23,493 bases of DNA from positions 1 through 23,493 of the IMG/VR virus record IMGVR_UViG_3300027985_000865, one strand, 5' to 3'. The notes beneath the pieces are model-generated. The model saw only the letters and a list, made by a program, of their open reading frames with translations. It did no database searches and was not told where the DNA came from. Source of the stretch: a virus. Below are positions 5,546-16,906 of this stretch, one piece after another. Positions within the stretch are counted from its first letter, which is position 1, and each line of letters starts with the position of its first letter. A program made the position numbers and the translations under genes.

Positions 5546-7887
5546 AAACAAACCTGCAGGAAATCCCTGCTTTGATAAATGGTATCTCGCGCCAGCCACC
5601 ATCCGAGCGCTTGCCCTCGCAGTGTGAAGAACAGGTCAATCTGCTTTCCTCACCGGCTGACGGGCCAAAGACCAGGCCACCGGCTGATTATGTCGCCACT
5701 CTTGGTAATATTGAGCTTGACGGGATCTGCGCTTCACACATCATCGAGCGCGATTCACAGGAGCAATATCTGCTGATTGTCCGTAATGGCACTCTGAATA
5801 TCTGGAGTTTTATCGACGGCAGCCAAAAGACAATTACCTATGATGAAGGAGCGCTCGATTATCTGGCGTCAACTGATCCTGAGAGTGATTTTAAATTCCT
5901 CACCGTTGACGACACAACCTGGATTGTCAATAAAACCGTTACTGTTGCAGACGCCGGGGATATTGAAGAAGCCAATCGCCACGGCATTGTCTATGTCAAG
6001 CGCGGCCTGAAGGCGGTCAAATATGTTGTTGTCCTGCGGGTGGGATCAACTGAGTATTCAATTATTCATACAACAGCCGCACAGGAAGCCGGTACTGCAG
6101 CTGAAACCTCAACTGAAGATATCGCCGTTGCCCTGCGTAACACCTTTGATACTGATGCTACTCTGGCCGCTGCGCGTGATGCTTTCTACTGCGACAAGGT
6201 TGCCGGAACCCTGCGTTTCAGGCCAAAGCAGTCAGACGCGTCAATGGTGCGCGTAGAAGACAGCTACGGCGGCCAGGCTCTCATTGGCTTCACCAACGAA
6301 TACAAGAACTTTACCGACCTGCCCGGACTCTGCTTTGAAGGGCATAAAGTCCGCATCAAAGGCATTGACGACGAAGCGGACTATTATCTTGAATACACCG
6401 AATCAACCAGTACGCAATTCGGTACATGGCGCGAGTGTGCCAGCTGGGGCAATAAGAATGAAATTGATAACAGTACCTTCCCGTACAAACTGGTTCGCCA
6501 GAGTGACGGCACTTTCCATTTTTCACCTTGTGCTGTTGAACCCCGAATCGCCGGTGACGAAGACACTGCCAAAGCCCCGCACCTTATCGGTAACACCATC
6601 GACGAAATCTCGTTCTATAATAACCGCCTGAATGTCTTCTCTGACGATCATGTCAGCCACAGCAAGATTGGTGATTACTACCGCTTCTATCCGGTAACTG
6701 TTCGCCAGGCGCTTGACGATGATCCCTTTGAGCAGACCACCACACTGGAAGGGCTTTGCCAGATCAAACACGCCTTGCCTTTTGACCGCAGCCTGCTACT
6801 GTTCGGCGTAACCCAGCAATACCAGATCACTTCAAAGGGCGCGTTCATACCGGACAATGCCGTTGTGGACCCGACCACCAATCACAAATGTTCTGATATC
6901 TGTAAACCAGTAAAGGCCGGAACGACCGCTTTCTTTGTTTCGCCAAATGACGACCACTCGATTATCCGCGAGTATTACGTTGTCAATGATGAAGTCAGCA
7001 ATGAATCAGGTGAGTCAACCGCGCATATCGGCAATTATCTGCCTAACAGTGTTTTCAAGATGTCAGCCAGAAGCGCCAATAATATGGTCGCTTTTCTGGT
7101 GAAGGATCACCGCAACCGGATTTATATTTATTCCTATCTCTGGACGGGAACCGAAAAGCGGCAAAGCTCATGGAGCTATTGGGAATTCTCAGAAGGAACG
7201 GTCATTATCGACTGCCGGTTTATCGAAGACAAATTACATCTTGTCCTGCAGCGCGACGGCTATAGCTATATTGAAAGTATGACCATGACAACCGACGCAC
7301 CGGCGGGCCTTACTTACGATCCGCACATGGACAGCCGGGTTCTGCTTGATAACGCCACGTATGATGAAGACAGCGACACGACCACCTTCACCATGCCTTA
7401 CAACCTTGACAATCTTGATCTGGTCGCGGTTTCAGGACTTGATACGCCAACGCCGGATCGACCGCTTGAGATTATCAGCAAATCAGGAACCGACTTCACC
7501 GTCAGCGGCGATTACTCAACCGGAGAAATTTACGCCGGAATCAACTATACCAGTAAGTATAAGTTGTCTGAGCAATATTTCCGGCGCGGTGATGATGCCC
7601 GGAGTCTGACCGGTAAACGCACCCAGATTCTGCGCATGGCCGTGTCCTATCAGAACAGCGGAGATTTTACCGCCGTAATCGAGAATAAAGGCCGCGTCAT
7701 TGAAAAGAAGAAAGACGGTCTGATCGGCACAACTGGTCTGGTTCTGGATAAGGCCCGGATTGACTCAGGTGAGTTCACCTTTGGCGTTAATGGCGAAAAT
7801 ATCCAGACAGAAATCTCTCTGGTTGCTCAGTCACCGATACCCGTTAATTACACCAAAATTGTTTGGAAAGGATGGAGGGCGAACTAA
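5542..7887 (+). CDS. Tail tubular protein B (nozzle), T7 gp12-like
   Basis: This is the hexameric nozzle of the short tail, to which fibres attach. The length is 781 aa against 794 in T7 gp12. The N-terminus INGISRQPPSERLPSQCEEQVNLLSSPADGPKTRPP is the typical opening of this family ('GVSQQ..., R...GQ...N..S....G...R'). The rest is beta-rich, with YYRFYPVTVRQALDDDPFE and the YLWTGTEKRQSSWSYWEF segment (about residues 530-550), both common in these nozzles. It starts in the ATGA overlap with tail tube A and ends in TAATG, sharing a base with the gp13-like start. Confidence 0.94.
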   Translation: MKTNLQEIPALINGISRQPPSERLPSQCEEQVNLLSSPADGPKTRPPADYVATLGNIELDGICASHIIERDSQEQYLLIVRNGTLNIWSFIDGSQKTITYDEGALDYLASTDPESDFKFLTVDDTTWIVNKTVTVADAGDIEEANRHGIVYVKRGLKAVKYVVVLRVGSTEYSIIHTTAAQEAGTAAETSTEDIAVALRNTFDTDATLAAARDAFYCDKVAGTLRFRPKQSDASMVRVEDSYGGQALIGFTNEYKNFTDLPGLCFEGHKVRIKGIDDEADYYLEYTESTSTQFGTWRECASWGNKNEIDNSTFPYKLVRQSDGTFHFSPCAVEPRIAGDEDTAKAPHLIGNTIDEISFYNNRLNVFSDDHVSHSKIGDYYRFYPVTVRQALDDDPFEQTTTLEGLCQIKHALPFDRSLLLFGVTQQYQITSKGAFIPDNAVVDPTTNHKCSDICKPVKAGTTAFFVSPNDDHSIIREYYVVNDEVSNESGESTAHIGNYLPNSVFKMSARSANNMVAFLVKDHRNRIYIYSYLWTGTEKRQSSWSYWEFSEGTVIIDCRFIEDKLHLVLQRDGYSYIESMTMTTDAPAGLTYDPHMDSRVLLDNATYDEDSDTTTFTMPYNLDNLDLVAVSGLDTPTPDRPLEIISKSGTDFTVSGDYSTGEIYAGINYTSKYKLSEQYFRRGDDARSLTGKRTQILRMAVSYQNSGDFTAVIENKGRVIEKKKDGLIGTTGLVLDKARIDSGEFTFGVNGENIQTEISLVAQSPIPVNYTKIVWKGWRAN

Positions 7888-8339
7888 TGGAATATCAGAT
7901 TCACGCCGCCAAGGTACATCATGCCTTTGAGCTTGGCAAGAACCTATTTGATCTTGAGCGCATAATGTTGGCGCGGTCTTTCCCGGAAGTTCCCTGCAAT
8001 ACCGCCCCTTATCTCTCGCTCTGTAATTCTGAAATATCCTGGGCGGCAGAGTGGCAAGGTGAAACCTGCGCGATGTGGGGCGTTCTTAATGACGGTCTGG
8101 TCTGGCTGATGCACGACAACCGGCTGAATAAATACCGCCGTTATCTACTCAAGGAAATGCCGCATTACGTCAATATTATGAACGAAGTTCACCCCGTAAT
8201 TTACAGCAATATCTGGGCCGAGAATAAGCGTCTGGTCAAGATGGTCAGCTGGCTGGGCTTTGAGAAAGTATCAGAAATGACCAATTTCCGGGGCTACGGG
8301 GAAACCTTTTACCGAATGGAGAAAAGATTATGTGTTTAG
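7887..8339 (+). CDS. Internal virion protein A, T7 gp13-like (GNAT-like fold)
   Basis: This 150-aa protein is in the position of T7 gp13 (138 aa), a minor protein needed for correct assembly of internal/ejection proteins. Its C-terminal half reads WAENKRLVKMVSWLGFEKVSEMTNFRGYGETFYRME. The pattern 'N...L.K...WLGF' resembles the end of GNAT acyltransferases, which many T7-group gp13-like proteins show. I see no clear acetyl-CoA loop, so activity is doubtful. A TTG-initiated longer reading and an ATG at 7872 exist, but ATG 7887 has GGAGG at good spacing and shares a base with the preceding TAA. The 3' end overlaps the gp14-like start. Confidence 0.8.
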   Translation: MEYQIHAAKVHHAFELGKNLFDLERIMLARSFPEVPCNTAPYLSLCNSEISWAAEWQGETCAMWGVLNDGLVWLMHDNRLNKYRRYLLKEMPHYVNIMNEVHPVIYSNIWAENKRLVKMVSWLGFEKVSEMTNFRGYGETFYRMEKRLCV

Positions 8340-8941
8340 GTGCAGCTGCCATCATGGGCATTGCTACCGGTGCGGCGGCTCTTGGTAATACGATTACCGG
8401 CATGAGCAGCCAGCAGGCGCAGTACGACGCGCAAATGAGCGCCTACAACCAGCAACTTCGCAGTAATGAAATTGCCATCGCTAATTACAACAGCGAAATG
8501 GCTGCCAAGGGTGTTGAGACGGTCAGCGCCTATGAAGCCGCTAACGAGGAAGTTCTGCAGGCGCAGGAAAAGGCCACTTCAGAGAAGAATGAAATCATGC
8601 AGGAAGCCAATAGAAAAGCCGCCGCCCAGAAAGCGGCCGGGAGCTACGCCGGACTTGCCGACAGTACCATTGCCCGCATGGTCAATGAAGTAAACCTCAA
8701 TGCTTCACAGGACGTCGATACCGCCAACAAGAACCTTGAGAACCGCACCATTGCCGCGCAGATGAAGAAGAATAACGCCTGGCAGTCCAGCTATATGCCG
8801 GGGCTGAACCTGATTGATCCGGCAATGCCGTCAGAGCCAAACTTCATGGGATCACTGGTATCAGGTTTCACTAACGGCGTTCTCGGCTCATATTCTGCCT
8901 ACACTTCAACCAACGCTCAACTTAACCGCTATCAAGGATAA
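8330..8941 (+). CDS. Internal virion protein B, T7 gp14-like ejection protein
   Basis: The protein has 203 aa (T7 gp14 is 196). The N-terminal 25 residues are small and hydrophobic (MCLGAAAIMGIATGAAALGNTITG). A long Gln/Ala/Glu-rich helical section (about residues 27-115) and a C-terminal stretch with MPGLNLIDPAMPSEP follow. In T7, gp14 leaves the virion and inserts in the outer membrane as the first part of the trans-envelope channel, and the hydrophobic N-terminus agrees with a membrane role. The start is inside the last ten bases of the previous gene. The order gp13-14-15-16 is fully kept. Confidence 0.88.
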   Translation: MCLGAAAIMGIATGAAALGNTITGMSSQQAQYDAQMSAYNQQLRSNEIAIANYNSEMAAKGVETVSAYEAANEEVLQAQEKATSEKNEIMQEANRKAAAQKAAGSYAGLADSTIARMVNEVNLNASQDVDTANKNLENRTIAAQMKKNNAWQSSYMPGLNLIDPAMPSEPNFMGSLVSGFTNGVLGSYSAYTSTNAQLNRYQG

Positions 8942-8947
8942 AATTCA

Positions 8948-11215
8948 ATGATTGGAAATGGCTATACCCGCACCCGTACACCGGATTCATCAACCCGTGA
9001 ATTGAGTACGAATATTCTCAACGGGATCTTCACACCCGGATCTGGAGTGAATATCGGTGATACCCGGATGATCGCCAACAATCCGGCAATGCCCACCAGC
9101 AATGATAATTCCCTTGAAGCGCTTGGACAGGCCTTGCTCAATGCGGGAAAAGGTATATCGCAGGTCGCCAACCAGTCGGTTGAGGATGCAAGGTTTCAGT
9201 TTGCCGAGAAGAAACAGGCTGAAGCTGAAGCGAAACAGGCATCACGGGAAGCCAAGTATGAAGCGGAAAAAGCCAGTCGTGAGCAGTACAAGACCGACCG
9301 CATCAACGCCAGCCTGCAGAAGCTGAAGGATTTTGATCTGACCAATCCAGAGAGCGAAGGCTCAAAGATGATTGCCAGCTTCAGAAGTGGCGAACGCAAC
9401 TGGGATCAGACCGTCGATTACGCCAAGACCCAGATTGACGGGCTTTCTGATGGCTATAAGGCTGAATATCTTTCGGCCTATGAAGGATTGCTCCGGGGCA
9501 TACAGGGTGAACACCTCAAGAAGCTGACCAATAATTTCAGCGATGAATCAACCGACTCATTGGTCGCGGCATTTACCACCGGCGATTACGATACCGAATC
9601 ACTGCGCAAAACTATTGACGGTATCTACAATATTGCCGACACCAATATGCCGCACCTTACCCCAGATCAACGGCAGGACATGAAAGAGAATATTCTCTAT
9701 AATTCCGCTGATGTCGCTTTCAGCCGTTTGCTGGCTGAAGACAAAATGGAAAATGCTACCGACCTGATGGAAGCCCTGCGCTCTGGTAGCAGCCGGGATG
9801 GTGAGAATACCTTGTTTTCGCGCATGGGCGAAGCCAGAAAAAGCCAGTTAATTGCCAGATGGCTACCGGAACTAAACCAGAAAGAGAAATATCTTGAAGG
9901 TCAGGCCATGAATAACAAGCTGGATAATAACATCTTCACGACTACCAAAACAGCCGCCAAAGCCACCACACTTGACCAGCTTGAACAAATGATGTCAGAC
10001 AATCACAACGAAGCCAAAGACGTCACCGACCCAGAGCAGATCAAACTTATTAACGCCAAAGCCGAGGTCTTGCGTAACCGCTGGTCACAACTCAGCTTTA
10101 TCAAGAACCGCTTTAATGAAACCCTGCAGCTAGTCAGCACCAAAGCCAATGCCATGATAAAAAAGGCATCACCCGATGAATGGGGCGAGGGCGGCCAGCA
10201 ACCAATGCTCTTTGGTAAGGATGGTCAGATTACCGTACCAGACGGCTCAAGAATCAGCGAAGCCATGCACACGGCCGCATCACGCTCAACCGATTACGTC
10301 ATGGGTAAAGAACTCGACCCTAACGGTAAAGACGCCAGAGAAGCGACAATGAAGATCTTCAATGAAGAACTTGGCAGACTTGGCTTTTCCCCAATTGGCG
10401 CTGAAGAACAGCAGAACGTTCCCTTTAAGGAAATCACCAAAGATATGCTTGTTGATAATCCGAAAATGGCAGAAACCTTTTACGCAAAATTCATGTCAGA
10501 CACCAGCGGCATGACCAGAGAACAGATAGTTTCCACCGCCAGCAAGATTCACCCCGACAAGAATGTCACCACCTGGCTGCTTGACCGGATCAATTCTGAA
10601 GAACGCAACCGGTCGATGATGCTGGTCAACCCCGCTAATCCCAAAGGCTATGAACCGATCACCAGATCAGAACCCAAACGCAGCGGACCATTTGACAGCG
10701 GGATAACCGGTAAGGGAATTGATAGCTTCTTTCGCATCAAAGACGGCAAACTTGAATACCGTTCGGCAGAATATTCCACTGACTTTAATCACTTCTGGCT
10801 CTTTGAGAAAATGAGCTATAAGCCTGAAACGATCAAGACCGAACTTGCCGGGGTTGACGCTGAGAAGATGTTTATCGTCAATGCCCTTTCAAGCCCGTCC
10901 GGTGATGCCCAACCAAAGAATCCGTATTACCGTCCGTCTGAAATTTTCAGCGGGATGCTTGATGATGATTTTGACGAAATGCGCCAGGGGATGCTTCGTT
11001 ACCGTAATCCGCGCACTCTCAATGAAATGATTACCGATCTCAGCCTTGCCGCACCACAACGGCAGAAAGATTTTCCGCAAGCCATCAATGAACTGGTGAA
11101 AGACGGAGTAATCAAAAAGACTGAAGACGGTAAGTACCAGCTTATCAATATCCCTGAATCATTTATCAACGAACTCTATTCACCTGAAAAGAACAAACAC
11201 AAAGGAAAAAAGTAA
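8948..11215 (+). CDS. Internal virion protein C, T7 gp15-like ejection protein
   Basis: At 755 aa this matches T7 gp15 (747 aa). T7 gp15 is ejected and forms the periplasmic section of the DNA-translocating channel. Residues about 75-120 form a highly charged coiled coil (FAEKKQAEAEAKQASREAKYEAEKASRE); the remainder is helical and hydrophilic with no membrane segment. The identification rests on place, length and helical character, as these proteins diverge strongly. AAGGAT upstream fits the ATG at 8948, and the stop is directly followed by the ATG of the gp16-like gene. Confidence 0.88.
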   Translation: MIGNGYTRTRTPDSSTRELSTNILNGIFTPGSGVNIGDTRMIANNPAMPTSNDNSLEALGQALLNAGKGISQVANQSVEDARFQFAEKKQAEAEAKQASREAKYEAEKASREQYKTDRINASLQKLKDFDLTNPESEGSKMIASFRSGERNWDQTVDYAKTQIDGLSDGYKAEYLSAYEGLLRGIQGEHLKKLTNNFSDESTDSLVAAFTTGDYDTESLRKTIDGIYNIADTNMPHLTPDQRQDMKENILYNSADVAFSRLLAEDKMENATDLMEALRSGSSRDGENTLFSRMGEARKSQLIARWLPELNQKEKYLEGQAMNNKLDNNIFTTTKTAAKATTLDQLEQMMSDNHNEAKDVTDPEQIKLINAKAEVLRNRWSQLSFIKNRFNETLQLVSTKANAMIKKASPDEWGEGGQQPMLFGKDGQITVPDGSRISEAMHTAASRSTDYVMGKELDPNGKDAREATMKIFNEELGRLGFSPIGAEEQQNVPFKEITKDMLVDNPKMAETFYAKFMSDTSGMTREQIVSTASKIHPDKNVTTWLLDRINSEERNRSMMLVNPANPKGYEPITRSEPKRSGPFDSGITGKGIDSFFRIKDGKLEYRSAEYSTDFNHFWLFEKMSYKPETIKTELAGVDAEKMFIVNALSSPSGDAQPKNPYYRPSEIFSGMLDDDFDEMRQGMLRYRNPRTLNEMITDLSLAAPQRQKDFPQAINELVKDGVIKKTEDGKYQLINIPESFINELYSPEKNKHKGKK

Positions 11216-14200
11216 ATGTCAGCAATCAATCCTGATTATGATCCGACAATTTCGCAATCTATCTTCTCACCAAAGCCGCAAGGCTACAGCCATGACGTAT
11301 ATAATTCACGGCGTAAGGCTGCCGCTGCAGAAGACAGCTGGTCAGTTGGCCGCTGGGGTAGCGCGGTTGGTGAAGCGGCCTGGAAGGGCGCGTATCACGG
11401 CCTTGCTCTGGATACTCCCGAAACCTTTTACCGCATTGTCCGAACCGTCGGCGATATGTTCGGTATGGATGAATGGGGCCGGTGGGCGGGTGACAATCTC
11501 AATGAAATCAAACGTCAGCGCGAATACGATCCGACCTATCAGGTCTCGCAGGACGTACTCGACGATCCTGTCGCGCGTAGTATCTATGGCGGTATTTCCT
11601 CACTGGTAACTTCATTAGCTGCCGGTGTTCCTGGTGCAGTCGCCGGAGTTGCTACTGGTGGCGCGGGCTTCATTCCGATGATAGCCGGTTACGCGATGTC
11701 AGCGGGCGGTTTGTTTGGTCTGGCTGAATACGACCGCTTTGTTGACGACGCCTACAGTGAATTTTCAAAAGCCAATCCCAGCCTGACCTGGCAGCAGGTG
11801 CAGGACGAAGTTCACTCCGACGCTCTGCTTTCAGCCGTGGCTGAAGGCGGTCTTGAGATGGCTGGCGATCTTCTGGCCGGTAAATTACTCGGCGCAGCCG
11901 GTAAGAGTTTCGTCGGCAGCATCGGCGGTCGCAGCGTCAAAGGCTGGCGCAGCTTTGGCCACAAACTTATGAAGGGAATGCTTATTACCGGACCGGCTTC
12001 CGAGCTTCCTTCTGAAATGGCTACCGCCTATATCCAGAATGAACTGCGTCGCTCGGCGGGTATGACTGTTGAGGATTCTGCAAAGGTCATGCAGGATACT
12101 TTCGGCCCGGCTCTGGTTTCATCCATGATCTTTGGTGGCGGTGGGGCAATTGCCGAGCATACCGCGCAGGCTGGCCAAAGAGGGAAAGAGCAGCAAGCCT
12201 ACCGCGCTGAAGTTGAAAAGCTCAAAGAGCAGTACCAGAATAACCCGGCAATCAAAGCTCTCCGGGAAGGCAGCGACGATGAAGTGATATCGGCTATCGC
12301 TAATGACGCCTTCAAGGTGATATCCGGTGACGAGCAGAATATCGTTACTGCCCTGCAGAAAGAAATGGCCGAAACTTCACGCCCCAAAGCACCGACCACG
12401 CTCAACCCTGAATCAGCCCAGTTTAAGGAATACCTCAAGACCCCGCTGGAAAGCTACGGCCTTGCTTATGAAACCCCGATGGGGCCTAAAGCTGGCAAGC
12501 GCCCGCTGCTGCGCACCGTTGAAGATGTTTACAACATCTATAATGATTTAATTCAGGGTAAGCTTGAAGATCATATTGGCAAGGGTCGGAAGTGGCAGTT
12601 TGGCCGGATCGCAACCGAGCAAGCCCAGGCAATCAAATCCAGTACCGGCCTTGACGCTGAAGGTGGATACTTCACTATTGATCTGGATGAACTGCGTCAT
12701 ATTCGCAAAGCGCACCCGGAACTTACCGCTGAAGAATTTTCCCTTGTTCCGCTTGTCCTGAGTGATTTTGATACAGCGCCACGAATTGCTTTTAAGAAAG
12801 GTGATGTTGACCGTACCCGTCGTGGATCTGTAAAATTCATTCTCAGCAAAAATATCGGTCAACGTTATTTCGCTTGTGAAGCAATCAGCAAAGGTAAAGA
12901 CAAACGGCTTGAATTGATTTCGTTTTATCGGGAAGATACTGACAATAAAAATGCCTCACCCGAAGGTGAGGCGGTCAAGGCTGGGATGCCACAGGTGGCT
13001 TCCGCAAGTACGTCCGCAACGCAGCCGGATTTTAAATCTCGGGGTCAGATGCCTTCCGAAACGGAATCCCCTGACTTTACGTCTTCAACGAACCCTGACT
13101 CTATTAATAATCCTACCACACCTGAGACTGATGTCAACAAAAATATTGCCGAGAGTTTCAGCAAATATCTTCGCGGCGAAGCACAGGAAATGACCCCGCA
13201 GATGGCAAAGGTCTTTGAAAATATGCGCGGCAAGATTGAAAATAATCTCAATACCGCCAAAAAATACGGCGCCGTCAGCGACATGGATATGGCCAGATAT
13301 CAGGACCTTTTCGGCAGGAAAACAGAAATTGCCAGACCCGATCCAGAACTTCGGGCAAAGGCTATTGAGCAGCAGTGGAATGTAATCGCCGGAAAAGCCG
13401 AGCCGACCACCGACATTCACGATACCGTCAATTCCAGTATCCTCGCACCGGATATGGAAAACAGCCAGAACGTTATGGAATACATGAACGCCCTGGCGCC
13501 GGAAATCGAGAAGCTTGCCGCCAGAGATCAACACACTTCAGCCAAGTTAATTGATAGGGCCAAACTTGCCATTGCCAGTAACAGCATCAATCTCGATGTG
13601 TTCCGTGGCTTTAATAAGTCCTTTGAAAACGCCGATACCGCGATGATTGCCGCCGGGATGATGCACGAACAGATGAACCGTGAAGTAACTACCGCCGCAC
13701 TGGAAGCCCTCAAGACCGGTCGGCAGGAAGATGTCGCCTACGCAACCCTGAAGATGTCAGCGGCTAATGAAATGACCGAGCTACTTTCCGGTATGGGAAC
13801 CAGTGCCGGCCGTTCACTTCGCGCGCTGCGTACTATCAAGGAAAAGCGCGGTAATGAACTGACTGACGCCCTGCACAGTGTCCTCGGTGGCGAAGCAACC
13901 AAAGAAACCAGCGAACTTCTGCAGCGGATTATCGGCAATCTCGTTGAGGTCGCAGATCCCAAGAATGAAAATGAAACTTCAATGATCCGCGCCCTGCAGG
14001 AAGAAGTCTCACAAATTCTCAGCCGCCCCGACCGTGAAGGTCTGAGTGATGAAGAATGGCAGAAGATCCGGGTACTCCTTGACAAGACTAATTTCCTCGA
14101 TCTTTCCGCACAGGTCAATATCCGAAGCCGTTATGAACGTGTCCGCGATATGGTCCTGCACTCGACAATTGCCGGAATGCTCACCGGCCCGGCAACCCAT

Positions 14201-15991
14201 ATCACGAACACCATAACCGGCATTTACACCAATACCAGCGAGGTCTATGATCGACTGGTGGCCGGGCTTGCCTTTGAAGGTGACGTCGCCATCAAGGGCA
14301 GCAAGGAAGCCCGGGTGATGCTTCACGGCGCCATTGAAGGCTATATCGACGCCTTCAAAAACAGCTGGCAGGCTTTCAAGACCGGATCGTCAAAGTTCGG
14401 TAATGAAAGCGAAAAGTCCGGCCAGCTGGTGGAAGGATTATCCGGCGCCAATGCTTACGGCATTGTCCACGGCACAAAGTATGACATGACCCTTGAGCAG
14501 CTGGAAGCGGCCGGGGGCTTGGGTAAATTATCCAAGATGGCTTACCAGAGTTTTGATGTCATGGCCAAAGCCCAGAAATTCATGTCAACCAATATGATGC
14601 TTGCCAGTGATGAATTTCTCAAAACCATGACTTATCATATGCAGCGCCGCGCCCTGGCTGAACGCAGCCGCATGATGGCCGAGCAGCAGGGCATGAATGG
14701 TGATGAAGTCTATAATTCCATCATGGACGGCAATAACCAGAATAATACCGAGCTGCACGAAGAACTGATGCAGTACGCCAAATATGTAACCTTCCAGGAT
14801 AGCATACGCCGCGATTCAGCCTGGACCCATGCCGAACAATTCCGTAAGAAATATCCTGAAACCATGCTGATTGTTCCCTTCCTGCGCACCCCGCTTAATA
14901 TCGCCAAGTGGGCAGGGGTACGGACTCCGGGCGTGGCCAAGATGTTCAAGGAGTACCGCGAAGCCACCAAAGACGGCGCCGACATGGCAACCCGCCAGAT
15001 GGCTGAAGCCCGGATGCTGACGGGTTCAATGCTCTGGCATACGGCGATGGTTCTGGCCGCTGAAGGAATCCTCACCGGTTCAGGCCCAAGCGACAAGGAC
15101 GAACGGGAAAAGCTCTACGATACCGGATGGCGCCCGAACTCGCTCAGAATCGGCAAGACCTATATCGAACTCACCCGCCTTGATCCGCTGGCAACCTTCC
15201 TCAACACCATGGCAACCTTTGTGGAAGTACACTCGGAGCTTGACCGCATGGATGCTTCTGAAGGTGTTGCTGCAACCTTCGGCGCAGCCATGAAGGTTGT
15301 CAGCGATAAATACTATCTAACCGGCGTCAATGAGCTTCTAATGGCCATGCGCGATTGGGATCGTTACGGTTCTGCCTGGGTAGCAAAACAGGCCAACGGC
15401 TTTATGCCGTTTGGTGGCGCAAGGCGGGCAGCGGCCAGAGCAATGGACCCGGTAATGCGTGAAGCCAAGGACTTTGTTGATATGGTCAAGAAAGATACGC
15501 CGATGGCTTCATTTGCCGGGGCAGCCAAAAGGACCATGCTCGGGGAAACAGTCTACTATGAAGATTCCGGACTTGCCCGCGCTCTCTCACCGATCCGCAC
15601 CGCGACACAGAAGGGTGACAAGGTTTATGACGAAATCTACCGACTCTCAAGCCGTGACCTCTTGAGTACCTCAAAGCCCCAGCGCCGGATCACCATTAAT
15701 GGCGAGAGCGTCAAATTGAATTCTCAGCAGTATTCACAGTACCTTGCCCTTTCCGGAACCGGCATCAAGCGCATGGGCCTTACTGCCAAACGCCAGCTTG
15801 AAAGGATCATCACCAGCCCGAAATATAAATACATGAATGACGAGGATAAAGCCAAGGTCCTTGATTCAACTATCCGGCTTTATCGCTCACGGGCCAGAAA
15901 AGTTCTGATCTCGCAAGATCCCGAACTGATGCAGATTATGAAAGATACGCAAGCCAACAATAACCCATTAGCGCAAATGCTGCGCAAATAG
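11216..15991 (+). CDS. Internal virion protein D, T7 gp16-like, with embedded BECR-type nuclease-like domain
   Basis: The protein has 1591 aa (T7 gp16 is 1318) and occupies the gp16 place. In T7 this protein is ejected, opens peptidoglycan and helps pull DNA in. Seen here: residues 1-110 are soluble; about 120-330 are Gly/Ala-rich with hydrophobic stretches (SSLVTSLAAGVPGAVAGVA); about 400-575 resemble phage BECR-fold (Barnase/EndoU/ColicinE5-D/RelE) nuclease domains, with LRHIRKAHPELTAEEF (H495, H500) and a final LELISFYRE; about 576-650 are a disordered linker; about 650-1591 are a large helical region including LTGPATHITNTITGIYTN, a stretch typical of giant phage ejected proteins. I see no transglycosylase motif. 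AAAGGA lies upstream and the gene abuts the previous stop. The nuclease call is by pattern only. Confidence 0.88.
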   Translation: MSAINPDYDPTISQSIFSPKPQGYSHDVYNSRRKAAAAEDSWSVGRWGSAVGEAAWKGAYHGLALDTPETFYRIVRTVGDMFGMDEWGRWAGDNLNEIKRQREYDPTYQVSQDVLDDPVARSIYGGISSLVTSLAAGVPGAVAGVATGGAGFIPMIAGYAMSAGGLFGLAEYDRFVDDAYSEFSKANPSLTWQQVQDEVHSDALLSAVAEGGLEMAGDLLAGKLLGAAGKSFVGSIGGRSVKGWRSFGHKLMKGMLITGPASELPSEMATAYIQNELRRSAGMTVEDSAKVMQDTFGPALVSSMIFGGGGAIAEHTAQAGQRGKEQQAYRAEVEKLKEQYQNNPAIKALREGSDDEVISAIANDAFKVISGDEQNIVTALQKEMAETSRPKAPTTLNPESAQFKEYLKTPLESYGLAYETPMGPKAGKRPLLRTVEDVYNIYNDLIQGKLEDHIGKGRKWQFGRIATEQAQAIKSSTGLDAEGGYFTIDLDELRHIRKAHPELTAEEFSLVPLVLSDFDTAPRIAFKKGDVDRTRRGSVKFILSKNIGQRYFACEAISKGKDKRLELISFYREDTDNKNASPEGEAVKAGMPQVASASTSATQPDFKSRGQMPSETESPDFTSSTNPDSINNPTTPETDVNKNIAESFSKYLRGEAQEMTPQMAKVFENMRGKIENNLNTAKKYGAVSDMDMARYQDLFGRKTEIARPDPELRAKAIEQQWNVIAGKAEPTTDIHDTVNSSILAPDMENSQNVMEYMNALAPEIEKLAARDQHTSAKLIDRAKLAIASNSINLDVFRGFNKSFENADTAMIAAGMMHEQMNREVTTAALEALKTGRQEDVAYATLKMSAANEMTELLSGMGTSAGRSLRALRTIKEKRGNELTDALHSVLGGEATKETSELLQRIIGNLVEVADPKNENETSMIRALQEEVSQILSRPDREGLSDEEWQKIRVLLDKTNFLDLSAQVNIRSRYERVRDMVLHSTIAGMLTGPATHITNTITGIYTNTSEVYDRLVAGLAFEGDVAIKGSKEARVMLHGAIEGYIDAFKNSWQAFKTGSSKFGNESEKSGQLVEGLSGANAYGIVHGTKYDMTLEQLEAAGGLGKLSKMAYQSFDVMAKAQKFMSTNMMLASDEFLKTMTYHMQRRALAERSRMMAEQQGMNGDEVYNSIMDGNNQNNTELHEELMQYAKYVTFQDSIRRDSAWTHAEQFRKKYPETMLIVPFLRTPLNIAKWAGVRTPGVAKMFKEYREATKDGADMATRQMAEARMLTGSMLWHTAMVLAAEGILTGSGPSDKDEREKLYDTGWRPNSLRIGKTYIELTRLDPLATFLNTMATFVEVHSELDRMDASEGVAATFGAAMKVVSDKYYLTGVNELLMAMRDWDRYGSAWVAKQANGFMPFGGARRAAARAMDPVMREAKDFVDMVKKDTPMASFAGAAKRTMLGETVYYEDSGLARALSPIRTATQKGDKVYDEIYRLSSRDLLSTSKPQRRITINGESVKLNSQQYSQYLALSGTGIKRMGLTAKRQLERIITSPKYKYMNDEDKAKVLDSTIRLYRSRARKVLISQDPELMQIMKDTQANNNPLAQMLRK
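12953..12972 (-). terminator. Terminator-like hairpin inside the gp16-like gene (minus strand)
   Basis: GCCTCACC (12953-12960) and GGTGAGGC (12965-12972) form a perfect 8-bp GC-rich stem. Read on the minus strand the loop is TTCG, a very stable tetraloop, and the stem is followed by ATTTTTATTG, so it is a canonical intrinsic terminator for antisense transcription. On the + strand there is no U-tract. It falls in codons for KNASPEGEAV, directly after the nuclease-like domain. Confidence 0.65.
12984..13075 (+). repeat. Two further hairpins in the linker-coding DNA
   Basis: GGA-T-GCCA (12984-12991) pairs with TGGC-T-TCC (12996-13003) around CAGG, with one T-T mismatch. Further on, GTCAG with TTCCG (13044-13058) pairs with CGGAA and CTGAC (13062-13075), with an internal loop. 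Together with the hairpin at 12953-12972, three stem-loops lie within about 125 bases of linker-coding DNA. Confidence 0.45.
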
Positions 15992-16018: not shown

Positions 16019-16906
16019 ATGCCTGAGAATATTTCACCATTCAAGACCAGGGATTACTACATCTATGATAGCAGCACGTCATTGTTTCCCGTCTCTTTTA
16101 CCTATCTGAAAAAGACCTATGTAAAAGTCCGGGTATACTCCCAAGTCAACGATGAATATACTTCTTATTCCCTTGATGCTGGTGATTACGAATGGTCAAA
16201 CGACTCAACAATCAATCTTCTCACGCTGCCTTCTGTTGGTGACCAGGTTGAGATATACCGCGAAACAGAAGATTCCGTCCGGCTTATTCAGTTTGATAAC
16301 AGCCGGACGCTTCATACAAATGAACTCAATAAGGATTCCCAGCAGCACTTTGATATCTCGCAGGAAGCAAAAGACCTCGCCAGAGAATCATTAACCGGCT
16401 CAGATCAATCCGTCACTGATTCAGCAATCGCCCTTGAGAATTCCGAGACGGCGCTGACAAATTCAGAAACCGCCCTGACCAATTCAGCCGCTGCCCAGAC
16501 CGCCGCTGAAGACGCTGCCGCCGCTGCGCAAGCTTCCGCTGATACTGCAGCTGCAGCCCTGCTGACGGCAACTGACAGCGCCCATGCTCACACCAATAAG
16601 GATCAACTCGACAAGATCGGTGAAGATGCCGAGGGCAATCTGACTTATGACGGTAATACTTTAAGTAAAGACGATCATAACCATGATGATGACTATTACA
16701 CTGAAACCGAAATTGACACGCAGATGGCAGACAAGCAGGATACTTCATCTGCCTTGACGGTTCTTGAGGTGACTGCGCTTCCAGACGTGGCCAGTGCAAG
16801 CAGTAATATTATCTATGCCCGTAATGCCAATGGTGACTGGCTTGATGATGATGATGGTTTTTACAAGCTGATCGGTTCAGCGTTTGTTGAAATGGGGGGC
16901 GTCTGA
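16019..16906 (+). CDS. Tail fibre protein with T7 gp17-like N-terminus (short, adaptor type)
   Basis: Residues 1-120 match the T7 gp17 N-terminal domain that fixes fibres to the nozzle (FPVSFTYLKKTYVKVRVYS, VGDQVEIYRETE, QQHFDISQEAKD). Residues about 125-188 are an Ala/Thr-rich coiled coil with ETALTNS repeated twice (DNA 16445-16486). Residues 189-228 carry the fibre motifs HAHTNKDQLDKIGEDAEGNL and HNHDDDYYT. It ends with a small beta segment (YARNANGDWLDDDDGFYKL). At 295 aa it is much shorter than T7 gp17 (553) and lacks a large receptor-binding tip, so it probably serves as an adaptor for the next gene product. The stop overlaps the next start (TGATG). The second copy of the 18-bp SD element drives its translation. 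Confidence 0.9.
   Translation: MPENISPFKTRDYYIYDSSTSLFPVSFTYLKKTYVKVRVYSQVNDEYTSYSLDAGDYEWSNDSTINLLTLPSVGDQVEIYRETEDSVRLIQFDNSRTLHTNELNKDSQQHFDISQEAKDLARESLTGSDQSVTDSAIALENSETALTNSETALTNSAAAQTAAEDAAAAAQASADTAAAALLTATDSAHAHTNKDQLDKIGEDAEGNLTYDGNTLSKDDHNHDDDYYTETEIDTQMADKQDTSSALTVLEVTALPDVASASSNIIYARNANGDWLDDDDGFYKLIGSAFVEMGGV
16445..16486 (+). repeat. In-frame duplication encoding ETALTNS twice
   Basis: Two adjacent 7-codon units encode the same heptad, ETALTNS, in the fibre shaft; the DNA differs at several third positions. A heptad period fits a trimeric coiled coil. The divergence between units suggests an old duplication held by selection. Confidence 0.6.

What the first reader, a model, noticed from the sequence alone, without database searches (positions are those of the whole stretch)
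12400..12940. BECR-type nuclease-like domain embedded in a T7 gp16-like ejection protein
Codons about 400-575 of the 1591-aa ejected protein read like phage BECR-fold nuclease domains (PBECR group, usually found at the end of MuF-type or polyvalent phage proteins): FGRIATEQAQAIK, GGYFTIDLDELRHIRKAHPELTAEEF with H495/H500, a VPLVLSDFD stretch, and a closing LELISFYRE. gp16-type proteins go into the cell with the first DNA, so an attached RNase or tRNase-like domain would be delivered before any phage gene is expressed. It could disable the host, a competitor or a defence system. Placement in the middle of a T7-type core protein is, to my knowledge, unusual.
Basis: partly seen in the sequence, partly recalled or inferred. 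Interest (0 to 1): 0.8.

Follow-up and report, generated by a model that had tools for sequence, protein, structure and literature searches.

The report
Nuclease-like domain in phage ejection protein
A short-tailed phage carries, inside one of the proteins it shoots into a bacterium ahead of its DNA, a module related to RNA-cutting toxins; the kind of module is already known from other injected phage proteins, but this carrier protein is a new one, and the module has lost one conserved loop, so whether it still cuts RNA is open.

Summary
ORF 11216-15991 (1591 aa) lies in the gp16 slot of a T7-supergroup podovirus. Codons 457-578 encode a divergent PBECR3 (PF18812) domain. Pfam gives 25.4 bits for the segment, below its curated cut-off of 30. 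A profile built without the window gives 47.7 bits, against at most 9.9 in 20,000 shuffles. An AlphaFold2 model (pLDDT 81, pTM 0.72) matches a TA-toxin chain and phage polyvalent and minor-capsid proteins. H495, H500 and S569 sit on the family's conserved His/His/Ser-Thr positions.

Two corrections. (1) PBECR3 in the last ejection-protein slot is not unique: at least four other giant ejection-slot proteins carry it. What is new is its position upstream of a phrog_6651 gp16-type core; relatives with that core lack PBECR3 and some carry other cargo. (2) The window copy lost an 11-residue loop holding a Glu invariant in 12 of 12 relatives, so activity is uncertain.

Best reading: a phage-delivered RNase-type effector riding on a gp16-like chassis, a new variant of the known polyvalent/PBECR theme. 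Delivery and catalysis are inferred. The core has no detectable sequence similarity to T7 gp16 itself; 'gp16' rests on gene order and on homology to cyanophage and pelagiphage internal virion proteins.

The parts
11216..15991 (+). 1591-aa gp16-position ejection protein (internal virion protein)
   Evidence: single open frame; phrog_6651 'internal virion protein' E 5e-26; tblastn to cyanophage, pelagiphage and Desulfovibrio phage ProddE internal virion protein D / gp16; follows gp14-like and gp15-position ORFs
12584..12949 (+). PBECR3 (phage BECR nuclease-like) domain, aa 457-578
   Evidence: Pfam PF18812; left-out profile; AlphaFold2 pLDDT 80.8, pTM 0.72; Foldseek
12698..12700 (+). H495 codon, invariant His in the N-terminal helix
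   Evidence: aligned with His in all 12 other PBECR3 domains
12713..12715 (+). H500 codon, second invariant His
   Evidence: aligned with His in all 12 other PBECR3 domains
12716..12727 (+). aa 501-504, site of an 11-residue deletion: the HG..E..RGQ loop (Glu 12/12, Gln 11/12) is missing
   Evidence: alignments of the domain
12920..12922 (+). S569 codon, aligned with the conserved Ser/Thr of the last strand
   Evidence: profile alignments; alignments A16 and A21
12950..13150 (+). aa 579-645, Ser/Thr/Pro/Asn-rich linker after the domain
   Evidence: composition
11588..11725 (+). aa 125-170, Gly-rich hydrophobic stretch, candidate membrane-inserting segment upstream of the domain
   Evidence: Kyte-Doolittle windows above 1.3; membrane role inferred
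14138..15925 (+). aa 975-1570, conserved C-terminal core of the gp16-type chassis
   Evidence: homologous to G002, G008 and 58 IMG/VR loci
8330..8941 (+). gp14-like internal virion protein
   Evidence: Pfam T7_gp14 E 3.8e-10; phrog_805
8948..11215 (+). gp15-position ORF (755 aa)
   Evidence: position only; no Pfam hit and no PHROG hit below E 0.09
7863..8339 (+). internal virion protein, 158 aa
   Evidence: phrog_308 E 4.6e-15
16019..16906 (+). T7-type tail fibre N-terminal domain protein
   Evidence: Pfam Phage_T7_tail E 2e-15

Best explanation
The domain is a genuine but divergent PBECR3 module spliced into the variable middle of a gp16-type ejection protein. The ejection protein is packaged in the head and enters the cell with the first DNA. 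The module lies after a hydrophobic, probably membrane-crossing stretch and before the conserved C-terminal core, so it would end up in or next to the cytoplasm. There it most likely acts as a small metal-independent endoribonuclease (His495/His500 with Ser569) on host RNA before any phage gene is expressed. Shown: sequence and fold family, conserved residues, virion-gene context, absence from near relatives, other cargo domains in relatives. Inferred: packaging and ejection, cytoplasmic location, catalysis, target.
For: Pfam PBECR3; PBECR3-bearing G145 ORF found with the whole protein; left-out profile 47.7 bits versus at most 9.9 in 20,000 shuffles. AlphaFold2 pLDDT 80.8, pTM 0.72. Best PDB match is a Salmonella toxin-antitoxin chain (7vd7_A, probability 1.00, TM 0.64 by target); HigB2 and RelE follow with low probabilities. 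The six viral matches with E<=1e-3 include PolyVal ADP-ribosyltransferase, 'nuclease' and minor capsid proteins. His/His and Ser/Thr positions kept. Iyer 2017 (PMC5512222) gives His in the N-terminal helix plus C-terminal Ser/Thr as the PBECR active site. Gene order gp14-like, gp15-position, this ORF, tail fibre. Near relatives G002 and G008 lack the domain. Same domain in other ejection-slot giants. Other enzymatic cargo on the same core.
Against: Below Pfam's curated cut-off. The loop with the family-invariant Glu and the nearly invariant Gln is deleted and the conserved Gly after His500 is Pro, so catalysis may be lost. None of 58 IMG/VR relatives with this core carries PBECR3, so there is no recurrence for this exact architecture. 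No near relative is available to test for selection. No PBECR3 enzyme is known to me to have been assayed. The best PDB match has E 8e-3 only.
Confidence: 0.5

Rival explanations
1. The module is a PBECR3 that has lost catalysis and serves as an RNA- or nucleic-acid-binding or spacer domain in the ejectosome, as proposed for the MuF-C domain of phage Mu gp30.
For: Loss of the invariant Glu and conserved Gln loop and of the Gly after H500; second-longest end branch among 13 domains; Iyer 2017 describes an inactive PBECR domain in Mu gp30 and suggests RNA binding.
Against: The residues named by Iyer as the active site (His in helix, Ser/Thr in last strand) are kept, as is R494; the role of the lost loop is unknown.
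Confidence: 0.33
2. The domain is an active RNase whose target is a defence RNA or a competitor's RNA (CRISPR RNA, retron RNA, tRNA-based abortive systems) rather than bulk host RNA.
For: PBECR domains are frequent in early-entry proteins, and Iyer 2017 suggests CRISPR RNA as a possible target; a relative of this core carries a DarB-like methylase/helicase module of anti-restriction type.
Against: Nothing in the window points to a particular target.
Confidence: 0.12
3. The segment is an ordinary helical structural part of gp16 and the PBECR resemblance is chance.
For: Pfam score below the curated cut-off.
Against: Shuffle control, left-out profile, fold prediction and absence from homologous gp16s.
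Confidence: 0.03
4. Assembly chimaera or dead gene.
For: The contig is a 23.5 kb piece of a draft bin, and the domain has lower G+C (0.456) than the gene (0.523).
Against: One intact 1591-codon frame with the gp16-type parts on both sides of the insert; all neighbours are coherent phage genes.
Confidence: 0.02

Closest known systems
PBECR3 family (PF18812), phage-Barnase-EndoU-ColicinE5/D-RelE like nuclease 3
   Same: Profile match, predicted fold, conserved R-H-x4-H motif, T, P, D and final Ser/Thr
   Different: Lacks the E..RGQ loop (Glu 12/12, Gln 11/12 in the family); Gly after the second His is Pro; score under the curated cut-off
Polyvalent proteins of phages (Iyer et al. 2017, PMC5512222)
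   Same: Large protein encoded among late virion genes, carrying an effector domain predicted to enter with the DNA
   Different: Only one recognisable effector domain; no metallopeptidase, ART, LPD or ArdC domain found; chassis is a gp16-type internal virion protein ('internal virion' and 'ejection' have no occurrence in that paper's main text)
phrog_9880 giant ejection-slot proteins with PBECR3 (L098, L102, G013)
   Same: Last ejection slot between a gp15-position ORF and tail genes; PBECR3 upstream of the conserved C-terminal core
   Different: C-terminal core not detectably homologous to that of the window; 2021-2863 aa; some with LPD22, LPD3 and RadC domains
T7 gp16 / P-SSP7 gp16 internal virion protein
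   Same: Gene order and slot; homology to P-SSP7 gp16, Syn5, P60 and pelagiphage 'internal virion protein D'
   Different: No detectable sequence similarity to T7 gp16; no transglycosylase domain found; carries PBECR3
MuF- and portal-fused PBECR domains
   Same: Same domain family delivered by a head protein; seen here in L095 and probably L032 (portal-like proteins, read from position and sequence) and in G096 (MuF by Pfam)
   Different: There the domain is at the C terminus of a portal or MuF protein; here it is in the middle of an ejection protein

Membership tests
PBECR3 (PF18812) | Profile match above curated cut-off | tested here: not met
   25.4 bits in the segment, 21.7 in the whole protein, cut-off 30; E-values significant, so homology stands though the curated bar is missed
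[quoted passage not shown]
   AlphaFold2 helix 37-46 then strands 70-73, 87-94, 97-106, 111-120 of the model; Foldseek to TA-toxin chains
PBECR3 (PF18812) | Active-site His in the helix and C-terminal Ser/Thr | tested here: met
   H495, H500, S569 (definition from PMC5512222)
PBECR3 (PF18812) | Family-conserved E..RGQ loop after the second His | tested here: not met
   11-residue deletion in the preferred alignment; Glu 12/12 and Gln 11/12 elsewhere
PBECR3 (PF18812) | RNase activity | not testable with these tools
   no enzyme assay possible
gp16-type internal virion (ejection) protein, phrog_6651 | Homology of the C-terminal core to annotated internal virion proteins | tested here: met
   phrog_6651 E 5e-26; tblastn to 64 phage records, many annotated internal virion protein
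gp16-type internal virion (ejection) protein, phrog_6651 | Position after gp14- and gp15-type genes and before the tail fibre | tested here: met
   the gp15 slot is filled by an ORF without family match
T7 gp16 proper | Sequence similarity to T7 gp16 | tested here: not met
   profile and BLAST give nothing significant
T7 gp16 proper | N-terminal lytic transglycosylase domain | tested here: not met
   no such domain by Pfam; known to be absent in P22-type relatives too (PMC8954989)
T7 gp16 proper | Packaged in the head and ejected into the cell | not testable with these tools
   inferred from slot and homology
Polyvalent protein (Iyer 2017) | Two or more domains of disparate biochemical activity in one protein, encoded with virion genes | tested here: inconclusive
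   one effector domain plus structural core; no second enzymatic domain above threshold

The most novel reading that the evidence does not exclude
gp16-type ejection proteins of T7-supergroup phages are a general delivery chassis with an exchangeable cargo bay upstream of the C-terminal core. In this phage the cargo is an active RNase that acts in the cell before the first phage transcript; in relatives it is DarB-like methylase/helicase, GGDEF or other enzymes.
Probability: 0.33. Interest if true: 0.75.

Novelty: new variant of a known kind. Interest (0 to 1): 0.5.

Why it matters
If the module is active, one of the best-studied phage entry machines has been adapted to deliver an enzyme that acts before the genome is read. 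The cargo bay seen across relatives would then be a place to look for unknown early anti-host and anti-defence activities. Even if this copy is inactive, the comparison shows PBECR3 carried upstream of two ejection-protein cores that share no detectable sequence similarity (phrog_6651 type and phrog_9880 type).

Tried and rejected
Chance match: rejected by the left-out profile and 20,000 shuffles. Helical structural segment common to gp16s: rejected, absent from G002 and G008 and from 58 IMG/VR relatives. Relation of the C-terminal core to LPD38 of L101: hhalign gave probability 0.04%, not pursued. Relation of the core to T7 gp16: nothing significant. Relation of the core to the phrog_9880 proteins: nothing convincing. 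Solved-structure sequence searches with the whole protein, the core and the domain found nothing. Single-sequence AlphaFold2 of the domain was useless (pLDDT 34). Phage collection with the window domain alone: no match. IMG/VR scan with the two-sequence window + G013 profile: no match. Tree of 13 domains: unresolved and troubled by long branches. Several MAFFT alignments put the window's HPELTAEEF across the E..RGQ loop without the gap, and the profile of 12 relatives chose that register too. To get a usable structure-prediction alignment I tried many subsets and chose A21 because it had the gapped register, so the model is not independent evidence for that register. The gapped alignment is preferred because T504, E507, P512 and D519 then fall in exact register and FSLVPLV is identical to G013; in the ungapped one E506 would sit on the invariant Glu, and the loop loss would be smaller.

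Full report
Setting. The window is the whole of a 23,493-base contig (G000:C49) of a draft bacterial genome. It carries the structural genes of a T7-supergroup podovirus, all on the + strand: portal, scaffold-like, major head protein, tail tube A and B, a small internal virion protein, gp14-like, a gp15-position ORF, the 1591-aa ORF, tail fibre and large terminase. A genome of the same bacterial family (G005) contains a contig that appears to be the same as a record named 'Planctomycetota bacterium isolate Hs463_bin132' (identical length of 28,529 bases and identical ORF), so the source is probably a Planctomycetota bin. Host assignment of the phage is not tested.

The carrier. The 1591-aa protein matches phrog_6651 'internal virion protein' (E 5e-26). 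By tblastn it matches the internal virion protein D or gp16 of cyanophages, pelagiphages, roseophages and a Desulfovibrio phage, only over aa 1014-1587 in the rows listed. It has no detectable similarity to T7 gp16 itself and no transglycosylase domain. 'gp16' is therefore a statement about slot and about the P-SSP7-type lineage, not about T7 gp16 by sequence.

The domain. Pfam finds PBECR3 at aa 465-578 (E 1.9e-4 in the full protein; 1.4e-5, 25.4 bits, in the excised segment; curated cut-off 30). The full protein found, on its own, a G145 ORF through aa 447-622 (E 6e-7), and that ORF scores 103 bits against PBECR3. A profile made of seven other PBECR3 domains, without the window, gives 47.7 bits for the segment; the best of 20,000 shuffles gives 9.9. 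With eight aligned sequences AlphaFold2 gave pLDDT 80.8 and pTM 0.72, against pLDDT 34 without an alignment. The best match among solved structures is a Salmonella toxin-antitoxin chain (7vd7_A, probability 1.00, E 8e-3, TM 0.64 by target length); HigB2 and RelE chains follow with low probabilities. Among predicted viral proteins the six hits with E<=1e-3 include PolyVal ADP-ribosyltransferase, 'nuclease' and minor capsid proteins.

Active site. Iyer et al. [quoted passage not shown] In 12 other domains collected here, R-H-x4-H is invariant or nearly so and the Ser/Thr is present in all. The window keeps R494, H495, H500 and S569 (with the register of S569). It lacks the following loop, HG..E..RGQ, in which Glu is 12/12 and Gln 11/12, through an 11-residue deletion. 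This is the strongest reason to doubt activity. It rests on an alignment choice: without the gap, as the profile places it, E506 would take the Glu position. The gapped version puts T504, E507, P512 and D519 in exact register with the family and aligns an identical FSLVPLV with G013, so I prefer it.

Insertion and cargo. The nearest gp16 relatives in the same bacterial family (G002, 1193 aa, and G008, 1358 aa) align at both ends but not over about aa 340-650, and have no PBECR3 (hmmsearch of 62 sequences). The domain has lower G+C (0.456) than the gene (0.523) and is followed by a Ser/Thr/Pro/Asn-rich linker, aa 579-645. In 58 IMG/VR relatives of the core the part upstream of the core varies from under 300 to at least 2000 aa. 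Of 26 scanned, some carry enzymatic or other domains: strawberry-notch type helicase with a weak N6-methylase (L040, DarB-like), SLT plus GGDEF (L045), SLT plus a weak C39 peptidase match (L061), DnaJ (L094), DUF7178 (L059). A weak methyltransferase match (L049) is below Pfam's cut-off.

Recurrence. PBECR3 is rare in sampled genomes (5 of 392 in the phylum). In the phage collection, two PBECR3 queries (the G145 and L101 domains) together found eight records at E <= 1e-3, and the window domain itself found none. It is recurrent in the last ejection slot, though: G013 (2863 aa), L098 (2754 aa), L101 (2123 aa) and L102 (2021 aa); L099 (3789 aa) carries it too but its slot was not checked. L102 has the full order tail tube A, tail tube B, internal virion protein, gp15-position protein with endolysin and peptidase parts, then the PBECR3 giant of family phrog_9880. 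L098, L102 and G013 share the phrog_9880 core, which is not detectably related to the window's core. So the same module occurs upstream of two ejection-protein cores that share no detectable similarity, as well as in portal-like, MuF and solo contexts. These were found by searching with PBECR3, so the count says nothing about how common the arrangement is.

Mechanism. In the T7 model (PMC8954989) gp16 leaves the head, its N-terminal part stays in the periplasmic tunnel, and its C-terminal part crosses the inner membrane and reaches the cytoplasm. The only strongly hydrophobic stretch here is aa 125-170; PBECR3 lies after it. By analogy the module would be in or at the cytoplasm at the moment the first DNA enters. 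A small RNase there could cut host or defence RNA before phage expression. Packaging, topology and catalysis are inferences by analogy.

Verdict. My probabilities, which are judgements and not computed: PBECR3 homology 0.95; ejected into the cell 0.8; catalytically active about 0.5.

Noticed in passing
L040:1-7638 (IMGVR_UViG_3300032294_001736): A 2546-aa open frame with the same gp16-type core carries a strawberry-notch/SNF2-type helicase (AAA_34, Helicase_C_4) and a weak N6-methylase match, i.e. DarB-like anti-restriction cargo on an ejection protein.
   Followed up: partly
L045:2056-7794 (IMGVR_UViG_3300033991_000123): A gp16-type relative with an SLT transglycosylase and a GGDEF-like domain in one protein.
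   Followed up: no
L112 (G000:C12, 3630 bases): A small contig of the same draft genome encodes a 908-aa T7-type single-subunit RNA polymerase; it could belong to the same phage as the window. Not linked by sequence.
   Followed up: partly
L019:10538-14663 (G002:C217): The gp16 relative of G002 is split into a 170-aa and a 1193-aa ORF, with one in-frame TAG reported by the search; a recoded or mutated stop, not examined.
   Followed up: no
L102:4018-6147 (IMGVR_UViG_3300010218_000019): The gp15-position protein next to the PBECR3 giant carries endolysin-like and metallo-endopeptidase-like parts, so the cell-wall enzyme sits in the gp15 slot there.
   Followed up: no
8948-11215: The 755-aa gp15-position ORF has no Pfam match and no PHROG match below E 0.09, although it sits between two recognisable ejection proteins.
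   Followed up: no
L095:6297-8438 (JAITVQ010000161.1, Puniceicoccales bacterium): A portal-like protein ending in a PBECR3 domain that is closest by BLAST to the window's domain.
   Followed up: partly
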